Assembly: GCA_027314515.1 (NCBI GenBank)
Contig: DAHVAR010000025.1
Span: forward strand, 1 to 51,130
DNA length: 51,130 nucleotides
Source of the DNA: Actinomycetota bacterium
GTDB taxonomy: Bacteria > Actinomycetota > Actinomycetes > Streptosporangiales > Streptosporangiaceae
Reading direction: 5' to 3'
Shown here: positions 13,807-41,110 of the stretch, piece by piece
How positions within the stretch are numbered: the first letter of the stretch is position 1
Layout: every line of letters begins with the position of its first letter
The notes under the pieces: model-generated
What the model was told of the DNA's origin: nothing
Database searches by the model: none
The model's input: the letters and a program-made list of their open reading frames with translations, nothing else
Program-made: the position numbers and the translations under genes

Positions 13807-14370
13807 TCAGCCGGTCGCGTTCAGCCAGCGAACCGGGGCACCGTCCCCTGCCCGGCGGAAGGGCTCGAGCTCGGCGTCCCACGGCTCGCCGAGCAGCAGG
13901 CTGATCTCCGCCTCAAGCGACCCGCCGAGCGCGGGGTGCCGCGGCCCGTGCACATCGCGCAGGCTGCCGAGCTTGCCGTCGGCGCGGCCGCTCGCCGCGG
14001 ATGCCGCCAGGGCCATCGCCGCGCGCAGCCGGTTCTCCGGGATCATGACATCCCCGTTCGCGGCGATCACCGCGCAGAACGTGCCAAGGGCAGGCGTATG
14101 GCAGTAGCGGACCGCGTCACAGCCGGGGCTCGCTTCCTCGCTGATCTCGAACCGCACCAGATTCCAGCTCGCGAGCGCTGAGGTGATGGCCCCGGCCGCG
14201 CCGCGATGGCCGGCCCACTCCAGCTCACCGCGCATCGCCCCGGGCGAAGCGGGCTGGTCCACCCACGGCATGCTGACGGGCACACCAAGTACCCCGGCCA
14301 CTGCCCACTCGATATGCGGGCACAGCGCCGGGGGCGCACAATGCACGTGCAGCACGCCACGTACGGACAC
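13807..14370 (-). CDS. DUF3145 family protein
   Basis: A 187-residue protein conserved across Actinobacteria. Recognisable features are the start SVRGVLHVHCAPPALCPHIEW, the VLGVPVSMPWVDQPASPGAMR segment, FEISEEASPGCDAVRYCHTP and the end EPWDAELEPFRRAGDG. GTG 14370 has GGGAGG six bases ahead and the family begins exactly there; the frame is open much further upstream but that is not coding. The biochemical role is not established. The gene is divergent from the three-gene module starting at 14552. Confidence 0.88.
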   Translation of the reverse strand: MSVRGVLHVHCAPPALCPHIEWAVAGVLGVPVSMPWVDQPASPGAMRGELEWAGHRGAAGAITSALASWNLVRFEISEEASPGCDAVRYCHTPALGTFCAVIAANGDVMIPENRLRAAMALAASAASGRADGKLGSLRDVHGPRHPALGGSLEAEISLLLGEPWDAELEPFRRAGDGAPVRWLNATG

Positions 14371-14551
14371 CGAGGACCTCCCTGCAGCAGACGAGGATGC
14401 GTCTTCCCCTACGACCTCGCCCGCCCGGAAGCCGGGCACCGTGCTGATGGTGAGCGTGCTGGCGATCTTCCGCGACTCATTGTGCCCTACCGCCGGAATA
14501 TGCACCAGCACTGCTCGTGCCTTGTCCGGCGCGCCGTGTTGTGATGGAGGG

Positions 14552-15295
14552 GTGACTAACGCAGCCGGCCGGGACGCTGCCGGGCTGTCTTTCGTCGCCG
14601 AAATGTACGGACTGCAGCTCGACCAGCTCACCGAGTTACTGGGCGGCACAGCCCGGCAGGCCAGGGCGCTGGCCGCCCGCTGGGTCAGCAGCGGCCTGGC
14701 TGAGTCGGCTGTGCTCAGCCAGGGCCCGCCGTGGGTCTGGCTGACCCGAAGCGGACTGCGAGCGTGCGGCCTGAAGTACCCCGCCGCGCCGCCCGCGCTC
14801 GCCCGGCTCGAGCACATCCGCGCGGTCACCGCCGTCCGGCTGGCGCTGCAGGCCGTTCCCGACTACCGCGACGGCGGCGCGCACTGGCGCAGCGAGCGCC
14901 ACCTGCGGGCACGGCTTGGCAGCCAGCGCGCCATCCGTGACCACCTGCCGGACGCCGAGGTGCACTGGCCGGACATGCCCGCCTCCGGGACGCCGCCAGA
15001 CTGGGCCGGCGAGTGCTGGGCCATCGAAGCCGAGCGGACGCCGAAGACGGTTGCCCGCACCATCGCGATCATGCGTGAACTGCTCGCCCGCACCGGGGAC
15101 TACGGCTGCCCGGCAGCGGAAGCTCGAGTCGCCGGGTTACCGCCACGGCATGCCAGGGCCGTCTATCTCTGCAGTCCGGCGGCAGCCGGGACGGTATTGC
15201 GGGCCAAGCTGGCCCTCGGCAGCAGTCTCGGCGCGCGGATCGAGGTGCGCGGCCTGCCGGCCGCCGGCTACCTGCCTGCCAGGACCCCGGCATGA
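14552..15295 (+). CDS. replication-relaxation (Replic_Relax)-like protein
   Basis: A protein of 247 residues. Residues 10-70 form a winged-helix-like region ending WVWLTRSGLRACGL. The following part contains SERHLRARLG, then HLPDAEVHWPDM (D134) and GECWAIEAERTPKTVART (E159, E161, K165). The order PD, then ExE, then K resembles both the Replic_Relax family (PF13814) and a PD-(D/E)xK nuclease core, so a nuclease or a degenerate nuclease fold is possible. The GTG start has TGGAGGG just before it. The stop overlaps the start of the next gene in an ATGA, so the three genes at 14552-17699 are one transcription unit. Related proteins usually lie on conjugative plasmids or integrative elements. Confidence 0.72.
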   Translation: MTNAAGRDAAGLSFVAEMYGLQLDQLTELLGGTARQARALAARWVSSGLAESAVLSQGPPWVWLTRSGLRACGLKYPAAPPALARLEHIRAVTAVRLALQAVPDYRDGGAHWRSERHLRARLGSQRAIRDHLPDAEVHWPDMPASGTPPDWAGECWAIEAERTPKTVARTIAIMRELLARTGDYGCPAAEARVAGLPPRHARAVYLCSPAAAGTVLRAKLALGSSLGARIEVRGLPAAGYLPARTPA

Positions 15296-17145
15296 CCGCA
15301 CGGCCCGCCGCGCGCGTACTCGCCGCGATCGCCGTCGCGCTGCTCGCGGCCGCGTTACTGCCGGTCACCCTCGTCGCAGCGGCAGGCCTAGCGGCTGCCT
15401 GGCGCGGTGGCTGGCAGCCTGGCCGGCTGTACCGGGCCGCGGCCTGGTGCCTGCCGATGGTCGTCGTCTGGCTGGCCGCTAGCGCAATCGGCCGGCAATC
15501 GCTCGGCCCGGACTCGCCGCTGCTCGCCTGGCTCGCCCTGAGGCATGGCCGCTACCTGACGGCCGGGGTGCTGATCGCGCCGCCAGCGGTGCCTGCCGGG
15601 CTGCTGGCCGGTGGCCTGGCCTGGTCTGCCCGGCAGGCATCGATGGCCGCACAGGCAGCAGGCCGGTCCCCGGCTGCGGCGGTCAGCTTCGATGACCGAC
15701 AGTGGCGGCACCAGGTCCGGGCCGCCCGGGCACTGATTGCCGCTCCCGGCTCCGTCCCGCTGCTGACCGCTCGCGGCGACTTCGCCGTGGGCGCCGTCAT
15801 CCGCGCCATCGGCCATCCGGCCCGCCGGTTAGCCCAGCTGCCGGCCAGCCGGCTCCGCTCGCATCAGATCGTGATCGGCAGCACCGGGAGCGGCAAGAGC
15901 ACGCTGCTGCTCCGGCTCTGGGCCGGTTACCTGGCCGCTGCCCGGCAGCGGCACGCGGCGGGGCTGGCCGGCCCGCCGCTGATCGTGGTGCTGGACTGCA
16001 AGGGCGGCGGTGACGCCCGGCGCATCGCCGACCGGGCGCGCCGCGTCCTGCGGGAAGCCGGCGCCCGGAACGTGGCGGTCTGGCCCGATGAAGCCTCCCT
16101 GTCGCTGTGGACACTGCCGCCCCGGCAGCTGATCAGCACACTGGTCGACCTGATCGAGCACGGCACTGGCGGGGCCGCCTACTACACCGACGTGATGGAA
16201 GCCATCGTCACGCTGGCGGTCGATGCGCCCGGTGGCCCGCCGGCCAGCACCGCGGACTTCCTGTCGAGGCTGGATGCCGGCTGGCTCAGCCGCGCCTACG
16301 GCGGCGGAGGATACGACGGCCAGCTAGCCATGGCCAGGTCCGCGGCGGGCCAGGTGCCGGATATCGGGTTGCGGTTCCGCACGCTGTTCCGCCGTCTCGG
16401 GCCCGGGCTCGACGGCCCTGGCAGCCTCGCTGATGCGGACGTCTGGTACTGCATCCTCGAGGGCACCGCCGAGGTCGCCGTCGCCGAAGCCCAGTCCCGC
16501 GCCCTGGCCGACCTGCTGGCGGGTTTCGTGACGCGGCCGGCTGACATGAGCCCGGCCGGCCAGCAGCCGCACCAGGTCCTGCTCGCGGTCGACGAGTTCA
16601 GCGCGGTGGCGCGGCGGCTGCCCATCTGGCAGTTGTACGAACGCGCTCGCTCGCTCGGGCTCTCGGTGCAAGTGTCCGCGCAGTCCTGGCACGGCCTGGC
16701 TGCCCGCCAGGACGACCGCTACCGGCTCGCCGCCACCGCTGACGGCGGCATCTGGCTGCTGGCTACCCCGCATCCGGACCCGGTGACCGCGCTCGCCGGC
16801 CAGCGCGCGTCCCTCGACACCAGCCGCCAGCTGGCCGGGCGACTGCACTGGACCAGGCACGGCAGCTCACGGCTGAGCGAGCGGCCGGTCGCTGACCCGA
16901 ACCGCATCCGCGCCCTTGAGCCCGGTCAGGCCGCCTACATCCACCACGGCGGAGTGACCTTCATCCAGGTCAAGCGACTGGTGGCCGGCCCCGCCGCGCT
17001 GCTGTCCGGGCCCGCCGTCCAGGCCGGCGGACGGCAGCGGGGCGACCGCCAGCCAGTGCCGGCCGGACCGGCCGTCCCGGTGCTGCCAGATGTATCCAGG
17101 CTGCTCGATGCGGCGTTCGGTCCGGCTGTCGGACCAGGCCGATGA
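15292..17145 (+). CDS. membrane-anchored HerA/VirD4 (TraG)-like ATPase
   Basis: A 617-residue protein. The N-terminal 115 residues hold several membrane segments (about 8-35, 50-66 and 90-112). Walker A is IGSTGSGKSTLLL (196-204 core) and Walker B is VLLAVDEFSAVARR (D434, E435); SAQSWHGLA (462-470) matches the conserved glutamine motif of conjugative coupling ATPases. Such proteins are hexameric pumps that drive DNA through a membrane channel. No relaxase, VirB4 or pilus gene is nearby. The start overlaps the previous stop and the end overlaps the next start by four bases, so the three products probably act together. The extreme C-terminus is a proline/glycine-rich tail. Confidence 0.82.
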   Translation: MTARPAARVLAAIAVALLAAALLPVTLVAAAGLAAAWRGGWQPGRLYRAAAWCLPMVVVWLAASAIGRQSLGPDSPLLAWLALRHGRYLTAGVLIAPPAVPAGLLAGGLAWSARQASMAAQAAGRSPAAAVSFDDRQWRHQVRAARALIAAPGSVPLLTARGDFAVGAVIRAIGHPARRLAQLPASRLRSHQIVIGSTGSGKSTLLLRLWAGYLAAARQRHAAGLAGPPLIVVLDCKGGGDARRIADRARRVLREAGARNVAVWPDEASLSLWTLPPRQLISTLVDLIEHGTGGAAYYTDVMEAIVTLAVDAPGGPPASTADFLSRLDAGWLSRAYGGGGYDGQLAMARSAAGQVPDIGLRFRTLFRRLGPGLDGPGSLADADVWYCILEGTAEVAVAEAQSRALADLLAGFVTRPADMSPAGQQPHQVLLAVDEFSAVARRLPIWQLYERARSLGLSVQVSAQSWHGLAARQDDRYRLAATADGGIWLLATPHPDPVTALAGQRASLDTSRQLAGRLHWTRHGSSRLSERPVADPNRIRALEPGQAAYIHHGGVTFIQVKRLVAGPAALLSGPAVQAGGRQRGDRQPVPAGPAVPVLPDVSRLLDAAFGPAVGPGR

Positions 17146-17699
17146 CGCCGTTCGACGCACTCGGCCTGCCGGCCAGCAGCCAGCTCACCAACGACGATGT
17201 CCGGTCAGCCTGGCGGCGGGTCGCGGCGGCCAGCCACCCGGACCGGGCCGACGGCGGCGATCCCGCCGCGTTCGCCCTGGCGGCAGCGGCCTACTCAGCA
17301 CTGCGGACTGCGGCCGGCCGCGGCGAGGCATTAGCCGATATCCGCGACCGTGACGGCTGCTGTGCGGCGGATTACCCCGTTCCCGCCCGGAAGGGCCTGT
17401 TGTCGGGCCGCGCCTATGTCGCCGTGCTGCGGATGCGGCACGGGCGGCCGTCCCGGCTCGCCTTGCGGCTGCTGGCAGTCGCGGCGGCTGGGGCCCTGGC
17501 GATCACCGGAGCGGGCTGGCAGCCGGCCAGCATGGCGGTCCTGACCGGCGCGCTGACCTGGCTCTTTTGCACCGGCAGGCGTGACCTGGCCGGGGATCGG
17601 CGTAACTGGGGCCATCGCCGGGGATGCCAGGGTGGTGCTGATCGCAATCGTGACGGCGCTCGGCGCGGCCCTGGTGTTCGGCATCTCATCGGTCGCTGA
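17142..17699 (+). CDS. membrane-associated J-domain protein
   Basis: A protein of about 185 residues. Residues 3-60 form a J domain: FDALGLP, then SAWRRVAAASHPDRADGG with the HPD motif at 32-34, and FALAAAAYSALR. J domains stimulate Hsp70 ATPase. Residues 105-150 contain two hydrophobic segments (LALRLLAVAAAGALAITGAG and the following PASMAVLTGALTWLFC), so the protein should sit in the membrane with its J domain in the cytoplasm. The last 35 residues are basic and overlap the start of the DMT transporter gene. ATGA overlap with the ATPase gene suggests it assists that ATPase. Confidence 0.72.
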   Translation: MTPFDALGLPASSQLTNDDVRSAWRRVAAASHPDRADGGDPAAFALAAAAYSALRTAAGRGEALADIRDRDGCCAADYPVPARKGLLSGRAYVAVLRMRHGRPSRLALRLLAVAAAGALAITGAGWQPASMAVLTGALTWLFCTGRRDLAGDRRNWGHRRGCQGGADRNRDGARRGPGVRHLIGR

Positions 17700-18531
17700 G
17701 CAGCGCAGCGCCAAGCGCGTCCAGACCCGGCGGGCGCTGTCCCCGCGCATCTTGCTGGACCTGGTGCGGCAGCCGCTGTGGGTGGCGGCGATCGGCGGCA
17801 CGCTGCTGGGCTTTACTCTCCAGGTCGTCGCGCTCGGGTTCGGCCCGCTTGCGCTGGTTCAGCCGATCTTGGTGTTCGACCTGATATTCGCGGTGCTCAT
17901 CAACGCCTACCTGCGCGGCCGGTGGGATCCGCAGATCCTGCTCGGTGTCGTCGCCTGCGCCGCCGGGATCGGCGGATTCCTGGCTGTTGCCCGGCCGTCC
18001 GGAGGTCGCACGGATGTGAGCTTCGACGTCATTCTGCCGCTGGCGGCCGGCCTGGCGGGCGGCGTGGCCGGCTGCCTCGCGGTAGCCAAGCGGAGCGAGA
18101 CGCTGCGGCCGCTAGCGCTGGCACTGGCAACCGGGATCAATTACGGCGTTGCTGCCTTCCTGGTGAAGATGGTGGTCGGGCGGGGCTTTCCGGCCCTGCT
18201 CACCGACTGGCCGATCTACGCCCTGGCGATAGTAGGCCCGGTTGGCTTCATCCTGAACCAGGACGCCTTCCAGCAGGGCACGCTGATCGCCCCGGTGCTC
18301 GCGATCATCACCGCTTGCGACCCGATCATCTCGATCGCCCTGGCCACCGTCTGGCTGGCCGAGAAGCTCAATGACAGCCCGATCGGAATCGCCGGCGAAG
18401 TCATCGCACTGGTGCTGATGGTGACCGGGATCGTGGTCATCGCGCACCGGGCCCCGCAAGTCGCGGGTTCGCGCCCAACGCCGGCCCCGCGCGAGTCCGC
18501 CGGCGGCCAGCGGGCAAGCTGGACAGGATAG
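17632..18531 (+). CDS. DMT superfamily transporter (EamA-like)
   Basis: An inner-membrane protein of roughly 299 residues with about nine or ten hydrophobic segments and the drug/metabolite transporter pattern: LWVAAIGGTLLGFTLQVVALG, LALVQPILVFDLIFAVLINA, and LAPVLAIITACDPIISIALA-type blocks in the second half (IAPVLAIITACDPIISIALA). Tandem GTG codons at 17632 and 17635 are plausible starts; GTG 17581 would extend the protein by 17 residues and overlap the J-domain gene further. The exported substrate is unknown. Confidence 0.78.
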   Translation: MVLIAIVTALGAALVFGISSVAEQRSAKRVQTRRALSPRILLDLVRQPLWVAAIGGTLLGFTLQVVALGFGPLALVQPILVFDLIFAVLINAYLRGRWDPQILLGVVACAAGIGGFLAVARPSGGRTDVSFDVILPLAAGLAGGVAGCLAVAKRSETLRPLALALATGINYGVAAFLVKMVVGRGFPALLTDWPIYALAIVGPVGFILNQDAFQQGTLIAPVLAIITACDPIISIALATVWLAEKLNDSPIGIAGEVIALVLMVTGIVVIAHRAPQVAGSRPTPAPRESAGGQRASWTG

Positions 18532-19184: not shown

Positions 19185-20120
19185 TCAGCCGGGCTGCGGG
19201 CCAGTGGCAACTGGCCGGTCCGGGTCGGCGACCCAGTCCGACCACGAGCCGACGTAGAGCGCCGCCGCGATGCCAGCCAGGTTCAGGGCCAGCAGTTCGT
19301 GCGCTGCGGTCACGCCTGAGCCGCAGTAGACGCCTACCTGCTGGGCGGCGGCTGGATCCGGGGCCCGGCAGGCTGCGGCTTCGACGCCCAGGTCGGCGAA
19401 CCTCGCCCGCAGGTCGGCGGGCGGGCGGAACCGCCCGTCCGCTGTGACGTTCTCCGCGGTGGGCGCGCTCACCGCACCGGGGATGTGCCCGGCGACGCGG
19501 TCAACGGGCTCGGCTTGCCCGCGGTAGCGCGCCGGGGCCCTGGCATCGAGCAGGATGCCGGAGCGTGCCAGGTTCGCCGCGCTGGCCGCGTCGAGCACCG
19601 GCAGCTGGCCGGGGTTCGCGGTGAAGTCACCCGGCGCCGGAGCGGCATCGTCCGTGCTCACCGGCAGGCCAGCGGCGGCCCAGGCGCGGAAGCCACCGTC
19701 CAGCACCCGCACCCGCTCGTGGCCGTGATACCGCAGCATCCACCAGGCCCTGGCGGCGATCGTCGAGTCCGCCTCGTCGCAGACCACCACGTCCCGGTCG
19801 CGGCGCACGCCTGCGGTCCGCATCGCGGCCTCGAAGTGCCCGGCCGGCGGCAGCGGATGCCGGCCGCCATCGCCCGGCGGCCCCGCGAGCTGCGTATCGA
19901 GGTCGACATAGGCAGCGCCGGGCAGGTGGCCGGCCCGGTAGCTGTCGAGTCCTGGCGGACCGCCGAGCCGCCAGCGGACGTCGATGACGGCGGGCGGTTC
20001 GTGGCCGGCGAGCGCCTCGGCGAGCTCCGCCGGGCTGATCAGCAGGCTGCTGGCGACGGCAGCCGGACCCGGTTCACCATCGTCAGCGGCGGAGCTGGCA
20101 GAGGCGGAGCTGGCAGACAT
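19185..20120 (-). CDS. sseA: thiosulfate/3-mercaptopyruvate sulfurtransferase (tandem rhodanese)
   Basis: A two-domain rhodanese of 311 residues that moves a sulfane sulfur from thiosulfate or 3-mercaptopyruvate to an acceptor such as cyanide or thioredoxin. The inactive N-terminal domain carries VIDVRW, GHLPGAAYVDLD and VVVCDEADSTIAARAWWMLR. The active C-terminal domain carries LLDARAP.RY, GHIPGAVSAPT and the catalytic loop VYCGSGVTA with C266; CGSG(V/T)TA is the form often seen in mercaptopyruvate-type enzymes. ATG 20120 is the only good start. Three DnaA-box-like words lie in the 120 bases upstream. Confidence 0.88.
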   Translation of the reverse strand: MSASSASASSAADDGEPGPAAVASSLLISPAELAEALAGHEPPAVIDVRWRLGGPPGLDSYRAGHLPGAAYVDLDTQLAGPPGDGGRHPLPPAGHFEAAMRTAGVRRDRDVVVCDEADSTIAARAWWMLRYHGHERVRVLDGGFRAWAAAGLPVSTDDAAPAPGDFTANPGQLPVLDAASAANLARSGILLDARAPARYRGQAEPVDRVAGHIPGAVSAPTAENVTADGRFRPPADLRARFADLGVEAAACRAPDPAAAQQVGVYCGSGVTAAHELLALNLAGIAAALYVGSWSDWVADPDRPVATGPQPG

Positions 20121-39977: not shown

Positions 39978-41110
39978 TTAAGCGGGCGTCCAGGCGGTGA
40001 GCAGGTCCTCTGGTGTCAGGACGTGGACGTCGGCGGTCGCTCCGCTGCGGGACACTGCCAGCAGTTGCGTCTTGTCGTCAGCACCGGGGAGCTGGCCGCG
40101 GTGGACGATGAGGTCGGCGAGGTCGGCGAGGTCGCGAGAGTCGAAGGGCTTGTTCTCGTGCCATTTAATCGACCCCGCGAGGGTGATCTTCTTGGCGCTG
40201 GGGAAGCGGTCGGCCCCGACCAGGTCGATTTCCGGGTCGTTGGTGCGGGTCCAGTAGCCGCCGATGGCGTCGGTTCCATCGGGCAGCACGCCTGCAGGGA
40301 GCCGGAGCAGGCCTTGCCTGATGACGGGCTCGATCGCGCGGCCGCGCCACGAATTCCACTGCTTCCTGATCGCGGCGAGGACTTGGTCCCCGCGTCCGCG
40401 CTCGATGACCGGCATGTTCGGGCCGATGAACGCCAGCCAGAAGCGCAGGTGCGGGTGACGTAGTAGCGAGTGTCTTTGGACGGCTGTGTCGACAGCGGCA
40501 GGCGCGCCTCGACGAGTCGCTTGCTGACGAGGATGTCGAGTGACCGGCTCAGTGCCCCTGGGTTGAGGCCGCCTGCGGCCCGGCCGATGAGCGTGAAGGT
40601 GCGCTCACCGTTGCCGATCGCGCCGAGCACGGTGCGTGCCGGCGACCTCGGGCGGGTTGAGCGGCGGGACGACCATCTCGGTGCCGCGCTGGTAGAAGGG
40701 GCGGCCGTAGGTGATGAGCGCCTCCATCATGGCCAGGTCCGAGCCGATGAGGACCAAGAGCACGGGCAGCCGCGACAGGGTCCGGTCGAAGGCCTTCTGG
40801 AGCGTGCCCTCGAAGCCGTGGTCGTCCCTGGCCAGGTAGGGCATCTCATCGAACACGACCATGCTCGGCTGGCCGGCGGGAAGGATTCCTGCCAGCAGCG
40901 TCAGCGCGGCATCCGGGTCGCCGTGAAGAATACGTGCGGCAGCCCGGACCGCTGGGCGAACTCCTCGACCAGACGCGACTTGCCGACCCGGCGGCGACCG
41001 CGGACCAGCACGGCCCGGCCTGGCCGCCCGGTCCTCCCGCCAGTACGAACCTGGTCGAGCAGCCCGTTCAGTTGGGCTAGCTCGCGTTGCCGCCCTGGCC
41101 GAGGTGCAGT
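39978..41110 (-). pseudogene. DUF234-type AAA+ ATPase, broken into several frames
   Basis: Minus-strand pieces spell one ATP-binding protein. From about 41110 come GRQRELAQLNGLLDQV, then a P-loop RGRRRVGKSRLVEEFAQRSG, ending at an internal stop after about 40 residues. A second frame (40862 to 40605) gives MVVFDEMPYLARDD (Walker B) and LVLIGSDLAMMEAL. A third (40630 downward) gives GGLNPGALSRSLDILVSKRL. A fourth (40415 to 39978) gives the DUF234 nuclease-like end with WTRTNDPEIDLVGAD and SIKWHEN. At least three frame changes and some deleted sequence separate them, so the gene is dead. It lies between hisS and the protease gene. Confidence 0.8.

What the first reader, a model, noticed from the sequence alone, without database searches (positions are those of the whole stretch)
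14552..17699. Three overlapping genes that look like a chromosomal DNA-pumping machine
A Replic_Relax-like protein with a PD...ExE...K arrangement, a membrane-anchored HerA/VirD4-like ATPase with intact Walker A and B motifs, and a membrane J-domain protein are joined by two ATGA overlaps. No relaxase, pilus or VirB gene is present, and the cluster sits beside core genes (DUF3145, DUF5709) with no integrase next to it. Seen: motifs, overlaps, membrane segments. Inferred: a resident system that moves or processes DNA at the membrane, with a J protein that recruits Hsp70. This combination is not one I recognise as a named system.
Basis: partly seen in the sequence, partly recalled or inferred. 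Interest (0 to 1): 0.65.

Follow-up and report, generated by a model that had tools for sequence, protein, structure and literature searches.

The report
Chromosome-resident DNA-transfer gene trio
Three joined genes in an uncultured actinobacterium look like the DNA-cutting and DNA-pumping half of a mobile element's transfer machine, with an added chaperone helper, that has settled in the chromosome of one lineage and is still being preserved.

Summary
In detail: a 247-aa protein with winged helix and PD...ExE...K residues (RR), a 617-aa membrane P-loop ATPase and a 185-aa membrane J-domain protein form one unit with two ATGA overlaps. Its profile ranks the Replic_Relax ORF first among 42 ORFs of the MOBC plasmid pAM373, and the ATPase profile ranks that plasmid's coupling protein (T4CP) first; both matches are weak in absolute terms. 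The ATPase follows RR in 26 of 29 testable loci, J follows the ATPase in 15 of 22. RR occurs in 29 of 297 family genomes, often beside DUF3145, whose divergence it tracks. Catalytic residues are invariant in 26 of 26; dN/dS is 0.17-0.41: not a dead remnant. Relatives lie beside serine recombinases or integrases. Best reading: a MOBC-type relaxase with its own T4CP, as in CloDF13, plus a J protein, fixed on the chromosome; a channel would come from elsewhere (TcpE in 288 of 297 family genomes). Nicking, pumping and Hsp70 recruitment are inferred.

The parts
14552..15295 (+). RR: winged-helix protein with PD...ExE...K residues, of the Replic_Relax/MOBC relaxase kind (247 aa, GTG start)
15292..17145 (+). 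Membrane-anchored VirD4/TrwB-like coupling ATPase (617 aa); ATGA overlap with RR
17142..17699 (+). Membrane J-domain protein with HPD motif (185 aa); ATGA overlap with the ATPase
14359..14551 (.). Divergent intergenic region between DUF3145 and RR (left border approximate); block ATTGTGC exact in 11 of 13 aligned loci and a TG-rich block directly before the RR start (possible leaderless promoter, inferred); no direct repeats found in 14330-14700
13807..14358 (-). DUF3145 core gene (start approximate), divergent neighbour; found in the same fetched stretch as RR in 16 of 30 in-family loci
19185..20120 (-). Rhodanese-type sulfurtransferase, right-hand landmark; seen in 8 of 30 in-family loci, many of the others being cut by contig ends

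Best explanation
The trio is the DNA-processing half of a conjugation or mobilisation system that came from an actinobacterial integrative element and became fixed in the chromosome of one lineage. Step 1 (inferred from fold and invariant residues): RR binds a DNA site with its winged helix and nicks it with its PD...ExE...K centre, as TraX of pAD1 does, perhaps also without a covalent intermediate. Step 2 (inferred): the membrane ATPase, a TrwB/VirD4-type ring, takes the processed DNA from RR and pumps it at the membrane. Step 3 (inferred, weakest): the membrane J protein recruits DnaK to remodel or unfold the RR-DNA complex at the mouth of the pump. Shown here: family resemblance, invariant catalytic residues, conserved order, inheritance together with a core gene and purifying selection in the resident form, and relatives in mobile elements. 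Not shown: any activity, the DNA site, or the outer channel, which would have to come from elsewhere, for example the T4SS-like locus found on another contig.
For: RR model (pLDDT 90.6): winged helix plus a C-terminal domain; whole-length alignments include Can2, Cdn1 and EcoT38I, recalled as PD-(D/E)xK nucleases (Z 5.5-6.0, rmsd 4.4-5.7, 120-154 residues). P133, D134, E159, E161, K165 invariant in 26 of 26 RR rows from the window's family and G001. Profile comparison with a Replic_Relax set: probability 93.4, E 2.5e-7. Among 42 ORFs of MOBC plasmid pAM373, the RR profile ranks the Replic_Relax ORF first (28.1 against 19.8), its C-terminal half alone first (26.8 against 17.3), the winged helix alone only 11th; the ATPase profile ranks the T4CP first (50.0 against 33.9). 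Foldseek: first 32 rows for the ATPase are TrwB, best E 3.0e-9. ATPase directly after RR in 26 of 29 testable loci, J after the ATPase in 15 of 22. RR against DUF3145 distances: r 0.60, n 18, 0 of 2000 permutations. dN/dS 0.17-0.41. Relatives with serine recombinase or integrase.
Against: Sequence membership is weak: Pfam Replic_Relax is below cut-off for the window protein and found at E 0.1 in only 3 of 12 members scanned; the comparison with the pAM373 ORF alone has probability 10.9, E 0.0028, and its C-terminal-half match spans just 14 columns at the ExExTxK stretch. The Replic_Relax-set alignment ends before that stretch (columns 8-148) and that set contains the pAM373 protein. D134 is not invariant once the G475 copies are included. 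The PD-(D/E)xK structural matches have Z about 6, which the tool calls common. The ATPase model has moderate confidence (pLDDT 67.7); VIA-align puts DndH first at 22.3, with VirB4 21.1, TrwB 20.9 and HerA 20.6 behind. No direct repeats upstream of RR. J is missing in 3 of 18 in-family/G001 loci and in all 4 distant ones. Degraded copies or fragments exist in G507, G522, G505, G549 and G583.
Confidence: 0.55

Rival explanations
1. A slowly decaying remnant of an integrative element: the transfer module stayed behind after the recombinase was lost and has no present function.
For: No recombinase or oriT-like direct repeats found at the window; degraded copies in G507 and G522 and fragments elsewhere; J absent or displaced in some loci; genes lie between RR and the ATPase in G586.
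Against: Intact frames in the window, dN/dS 0.17-0.41, catalytic residues invariant in 26 of 26 and HPD in 16 of 16 N-terminal J segments, DUF3145 or rhodanese landmark in 20 of 30 in-family loci.
Confidence: 0.17
2. An anti-phage or anti-plasmid system: a nuclease fed by a HerA/DndH-like translocase, with a chaperone-type third protein.
For: DndH has the highest VIA-align Z (22.3), HerA 20.6; PADLOC mad8 matches the ATPase over residues 189-470 at E 4.3e-7 and HerA models at 6e-4 or weaker; nuclease plus HerA defence units are known (recalled; several HerA defence complexes appear).
Against: No PADLOC match for RR or J; Foldseek's first 32 rows are TrwB; RR and ATPase each find the relaxase and the T4CP of one plasmid first; relatives sit with recombinases; the resident form is inherited with a core gene.
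Confidence: 0.13
3. A TraB-like double-stranded DNA mover of mycelial actinobacteria, in which RR is only a site-binding protein and not a nuclease.
For: ICEs of mycelial actinobacteria such as pSAM2 move dsDNA with an FtsK-based pump and no relaxase (PMC3158045 passage); the RR-only loci L134 and L136 lie beside a separate Walker-A ATPase; RR begins with a MarR-like winged helix.
Against: Invariance of PD/E/E/K in the resident lineage argues for catalysis; TrwB, not FtsK, leads the ATPase's Foldseek list, and FtsK appears lower in VIA-align (Z 15.1-15.6).
Confidence: 0.13

Closest known systems
CloDF13 MobC relaxase + MobB coupling protein (MOBC1 mobilizable plasmids)
   Same: A MOBC relaxase encoded with its own T4CP on an element that borrows another system's channel (PMC7431656 and PMC11389934 passages).
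   Different: Plasmid-borne; no J protein mentioned in the passages read. No sequence comparison was made: the held CloDF13 record's gene table lists no mobB or mobC.
TraX-type MOBC relaxase and T4CP of pAD1/pAM373 plasmids of Enterococcus
   Same: Restriction-endonuclease-like relaxase with a winged helix (PMC12857230 passages); best pAM373 matches of both window profiles.
   Different: Plasmid with further transfer genes; T4CP gene first and about 0.9 kb from the relaxase gene; no J gene in the gene table.
Replic_Relax + TrwB-like gene pairs of actinobacteria (L144, L146)
   Same: Adjacent Replic_Relax and TrwB_AAD_bind genes.
   Different: Order reversed, ATPase of 456 aa; Replic_Relax well over cut-off.
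Thermus ICETh1 TdtA with a NurA-like nuclease and a restriction enzyme (transjugation)
   Same: A membrane-located hexameric ATPase acting with nucleases to donate chromosomal DNA (PMC5365140 abstract, outline and section 15).
   Different: Other nuclease families; carried on a self-excising element; no J protein mentioned in what I read.
Actinobacterial integrative elements
   Same: Divergent homologues of RR and the ATPase lie beside serine recombinase or integrase genes, some with XRE/DUF397 genes.
   Different: No recombinase was found at the window locus, which is inherited with its neighbour DUF3145.

Membership tests
MOBC (Replic_Relax) relaxase | N-terminal winged helix | tested here: met
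   Model pLDDT 90.6; MexR/MarR-type match Z 6.5, rmsd 1.1 over 67 residues
MOBC (Replic_Relax) relaxase | PD-(D/E)xK (restriction-endonuclease-like) fold of the catalytic domain | tested here: inconclusive
   Can2, Cdn1 and EcoT38I among whole-length alignments, but Z only 5.5-6.0
MOBC (Replic_Relax) relaxase | Conserved acidic/Lys catalytic residues | tested here: met
   P133 D134 E159 E161 K165 in 26 of 26; D134 varies in the distant G475 copies; ExExTxK lines up with FEIELTMK of the pAM373 protein
MOBC (Replic_Relax) relaxase | Sequence-profile membership | tested here: inconclusive
   Pfam 15.3 against 25.3 bits; hhalign to a Replic_Relax set E 2.5e-7; rank 1 of 42 in pAM373 but probability 10.9
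MOBC (Replic_Relax) relaxase | Site-specific nicking at an oriT | not testable with these tools
   needs biochemistry; no direct repeats found at 14330-14700
VirD4/TrwB type IV coupling protein | RecA-like nucleotide-binding domain with Walker A and B | tested here: met
VirD4/TrwB type IV coupling protein | N-terminal transmembrane anchor | tested here: met
   three hydrophobic segments within residues 3-110 by hydropathy
VirD4/TrwB type IV coupling protein | All-alpha domain inserted in the nucleotide-binding domain | tested here: inconclusive
   helical block 277-369 between strands 261-264 and 384-388 in a model of moderate confidence
VirD4/TrwB type IV coupling protein | Works with a relaxase encoded beside it | tested here: inconclusive
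   encoded directly after RR in 26 of 29 testable loci; RR is a relaxase candidate, and joint action was not tested
J-domain protein | J domain with HPD motif | tested here: met
   DnaJ 23.5 bits, E 6.2e-5, below the 27.8 cut-off; HPD at 32 and in 16 of 16 N-terminal J segments
J-domain protein | Stimulates Hsp70 | not testable with these tools
   needs biochemistry
Integrative conjugative/mobilizable element | Site-specific recombinase in the same element | tested here: not met
   none among the 14 other window proteins scanned; present beside divergent homologues
HerA-nuclease defence system | Known defence families matched by both nuclease and ATPase | tested here: not met
   PADLOC at E 1: mad8 and HerA models for the ATPase, none for RR or J

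The most novel reading that the evidence does not exclude
A split, chromosome-encoded gene-transfer machine: the lineage's resident relaxase-T4CP-J unit plugs into the family's near-universal T4SS-like locus (VirB4, TcpE, TrbL/VirB6, NlpC/P60, TcpC) and donates the cell's own chromosomal DNA, a domesticated counterpart of Thermus transjugation, with Hsp70-assisted loading through the J protein.
Probability: 0.14. Interest if true: 0.82.

Novelty: new variant of a known kind. Interest (0 to 1): 0.45.

Why it matters
A 2011 survey found many relaxases but few coupling proteins or secretion systems in actinobacteria and called the number of conjugative systems surprisingly low (PMC3158045 passages). 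Here a relaxase/T4CP-like pair sits below or at the standard family thresholds, so part of that gap may be detection. If the resident form works, a lineage has kept half of a mobile element's transfer machine as its own, and the J protein would offer a handle on how relaxase complexes are loaded.

Tried and rejected
Plasmid and phage protein searches with the ATPase and a plasmid search with RR gave no match. One viral-contig scan with the ATPase alignment gave none. PHROGs gave nothing for RR, weak matches for the ATPase and phrog_13942 (E 1.1e-5, function unknown) for J. The PDB sequence search of the ATPase gave one hit at E 0.97. The Foldseek list for RR mixes winged-helix proteins with long poor alignments to methyltransferases, one of which is the only row with E under 0.001 (TMq 0.21, rmsd 15.6); I rejected a methyltransferase reading because those superpositions fail and the shared part is the winged helix. 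The 'remnant' reading was lowered by selection and invariance. Class-level searches score few candidates per genome (at most 3, 7), so 3 and 6 of 394 are lower bounds. The family count (29 of 297) scores at most 9 per genome, includes fragments and rests partly on incomplete assemblies. Order counts use 35 loci; not entered were the degraded copies L035 and L139, L030, loci duplicating the same contigs (L004, L005, L008-L011) and unfetched fragments of G549 and G583. Dropped from the RR-ATPase count: L037 (fragment) and L036, L122, L124, L128 (under 240 bases after RR). L007 has RR cut by its contig end and enters the J count only (gap). L034 was left out of the J count (172 bases left), though the start of J is there. 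'Directly' means the same strand with a gap between profile matches of at most 760 bases. Some loci were first found through the ATPase. The CloDF13 record and four short Enterococcus stretches were fetched but not used. Francia et al. 2013 is not held; I rely on review passages. Literature searches for a J protein with relaxase terms: 0 papers and 1 listing, judged unrelated from its title. G128's weak match had no RR, ATPase or J profile hit. TcpE does not follow the trio: 24 of 29 RR-positive genomes have a hit against 264 of the other 268 (taking the two draws of 297 as the same genomes), so it shows that an apparatus is available, not a link.
Full report
What is there. The three frames are as described: RR GTG14552-15295, ATPase ATG15292-17145, J ATG17142-17699, each pair sharing ATGA. 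RR has no hydrophobic segment, the ATPase three near its N-terminus, J one. By Pfam alone the three proteins are sub-threshold: Replic_Relax 15.3 bits (cut-off 25.3), TraG-D_C 18.1 (22) and DnaJ 23.5 (27.8).

Are they genes in use? Against L004 (94% identical ATPase) and more distant loci, third codon positions change most often; dN/dS between the window and relatives is 0.17-0.40 for the ATPase (6 pairs), 0.26-0.37 for RR (4 pairs) and 0.34-0.41 for J (2 pairs), compared with 0.14-0.16 for two neighbouring genes. These are Nei-Gojobori estimates with high synonymous divergence in the distant pairs; only their lying well below 1 should be used.

Distribution. RR matches at E 1e-5 in 29 of 297 genomes and 13 of 68 genera of the family, in 6 of 9 genomes of the genus (one is a fragment, and G109 is missed because its contig ends inside RR), and in 6 of 394 class genomes, the own genome included each time. 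A plain protein search with the ATPase found 4 of 150 in the order, own genome included, one a weak match later set aside. It is a feature of one lineage, not a core actinobacterial system.

Order. I examined 35 loci: 34 with an RR match and one (L007) where RR is cut by the contig end. Of 29 with a usable RR and at least 440 bases after it, the ATPase follows directly in 26; in L127 it lies 4.2 kb on, in L134 and L136 it is absent. Of 22 loci with the ATPase and at least 280 bases after it, J follows in 15 (14 within 200 bases, L121 at 1.9 kb). The seven without J are L116, L132, L133, the three G475 copies and G334. Among in-family and G001 loci the figure is 15 of 18.

Place. Of the 30 in-family loci, DUF3145 is in the same stretch in 16: the window, 14 loci (at about 3 and 8 kb in L120 and L138) and G509 at about 8 kb. 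The rhodanese gene lies beyond J in 8 (window, L007, L117, L121, L123, L127, L130, L131). Together 20 of 30 have at least one landmark; several of the rest are cut by contig ends, but G507, G542, G544 and both G511 copies lie elsewhere in stretches of at least 12 kb. DUF3145 is found in 34 of 41 genomes searched, own included. In five relatives without the trio that I looked at (L074, L076, L077, L088, L089) the DUF3145-rhodanese interval holds other genes, read by eye as mostly a sigma factor and a large protein. Pairwise RR and DUF3145 distances correlate (r 0.60, n 18, 0 of 2000 permutations; r 0.43, n 17 without G001, also 0 of 2000), RR with ATPase at 0.83 (n 19). This fits inheritance of the unit with its neighbour.

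Mobile relatives. In G001 (another family) the trio lies 1 kb from a serine recombinase (Resolvase 6.8e-29, Recombinase 4.4e-17). In G511, RR in L136 sits beside a serine recombinase with GntR and HTH_17 genes, and in L137 a trio with a frame break in RR sits near XRE/DUF5753 and DUF397 genes; G542 (L135) carries a trio near XRE/DUF5753 and HATPase genes. No recombinase was identified in L135 or L137. The nearly finished genome G475 (two contigs) has three distant RR-ATPase pairs without J; two carry a Phage_integrase gene by Pfam (L027, L028; the third was not scanned), two lie by a tRNA gene (L026, L027), and the copies share pieces summing to about 7-8 kb at 80-91% identity. So the module, or relatives of it, occurs in integrative elements as well as in a resident form.

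What RR is. The model (pLDDT 90.6) has an N-terminal winged helix (MexR, Z 6.5, 67 residues) and a C-terminal domain for which Can2, Cdn1 and EcoT38I appear among whole-length alignments at Z 5.5-6.0. These values are modest, and that the three are PD-(D/E)xK nucleases is recalled. Invariant residues are the stronger sign: P133, D134, E159, E161, K165 in 26 of 26, though D134 varies when the G475 copies are added. An RR profile matches a Replic_Relax set at E 2.5e-7, over columns that end before ExExTxK, and the set includes the pAM373 protein. As a specificity control I compared the RR profile with all 42 ORFs of at least 100 aa in the fetched pAM373 sequence, a plasmid typed MOBC: the Replic_Relax ORF ranks first with the whole profile and with the C-terminal half, 11th with the winged helix alone, so the signal sits in the catalytic half, in 14 columns at ExExTxK. 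In absolute terms it is weak (probability 10.9). MOBC relaxases are related to PD-(D/E)xK restriction enzymes; TraX has a winged helix and no covalent intermediate was observed (PMC12857230 passages; PMC5714925 passages). PF13814 has been labelled MobC (PMC5357655 passage).

What the ATPase is. Foldseek's first 32 rows are TrwB (best E 3.0e-9), then Legionella's coupling complex, HerA and DndH. VIA-align puts DndH first (22.3), with VirB4 21.1, TrwB 20.9 and HerA 20.6 tied behind. The pAM373 T4CP ranks first of 42 for its profile, the plasmid's other large ATPase second. I read it as a coupling protein; HerA/DndH kinship is not excluded.

J protein. It carries HPD and, in the window, one hydrophobic segment. 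Its role is the least supported step; Hsp70-assisted handling of the relaxase complex at the pump is my inference. Two searches combining J-domain or DnaJ with relaxase terms found no such report.

The missing channel. The own genome has VirB4-like, TcpE, TrbL/VirB6, NlpC/P60 and TcpC genes on C155, and TcpE is over cut-off in 288 of 297 family genomes. Whether the trio uses that apparatus is unknown, and the apparatus is as common in genomes without the trio.

Conclusion. The trio most likely works like a MOBC relaxase with its own T4CP (the CloDF13 arrangement), with an added J protein, and is fixed on the chromosome. It does not meet the recombinase criterion of an integrative element at this locus, and its relaxase membership rests on profile, fold and residues, not on activity.

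Noticed in passing
G000:C155 (L114:9166-19959): A T4SS-like cluster (VirB4-type AAA_10, TcpE, TrbL/VirB6, NlpC/P60, TcpC); TcpE is present in 288 of 297 family genomes, one copy in nearly every listed row. What such a near-universal apparatus does is unexplained here.
   Followed up: partly
window 14359-14551: Block ATTGTGC exact in 11 of 13 aligned loci, a CCAGCAC block and a TG-rich block just before RR; possibly divergent promoters with a leaderless RR message. A 20-nt, 80% complementary inverted repeat lies at 14491-14531.
   Followed up: partly
L134:4314-6323, L136:10719-12818: Walker-A ATPases (AGTGGGKT) without a Pfam match at 0.001, beside RR genes that lack the usual ATPase, in element-like surroundings.
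   Followed up: no
window 39978-40862: Two neighbouring ORFs, one matching DUF234, look by eye like a broken AAA-type ATPase gene.
   Followed up: no
DUF3145-rhodanese interval in L074, L076, L077, L088, L089: The spot that holds the trio holds other genes in these relatives, read by eye as mostly a sigma factor plus a large protein: a variable interval between conserved genes.
   Followed up: partly
G507:C271 (L035), G522:C691 (L139): Degraded or partial second copies of RR in genomes that also hold a full-length RR.
   Followed up: no
window 17581-18531: A DMT-family transporter frame overlaps the end of J by up to 119 bases; seen with the trio only in the window and L007, where many contigs end earlier.
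   Followed up: no
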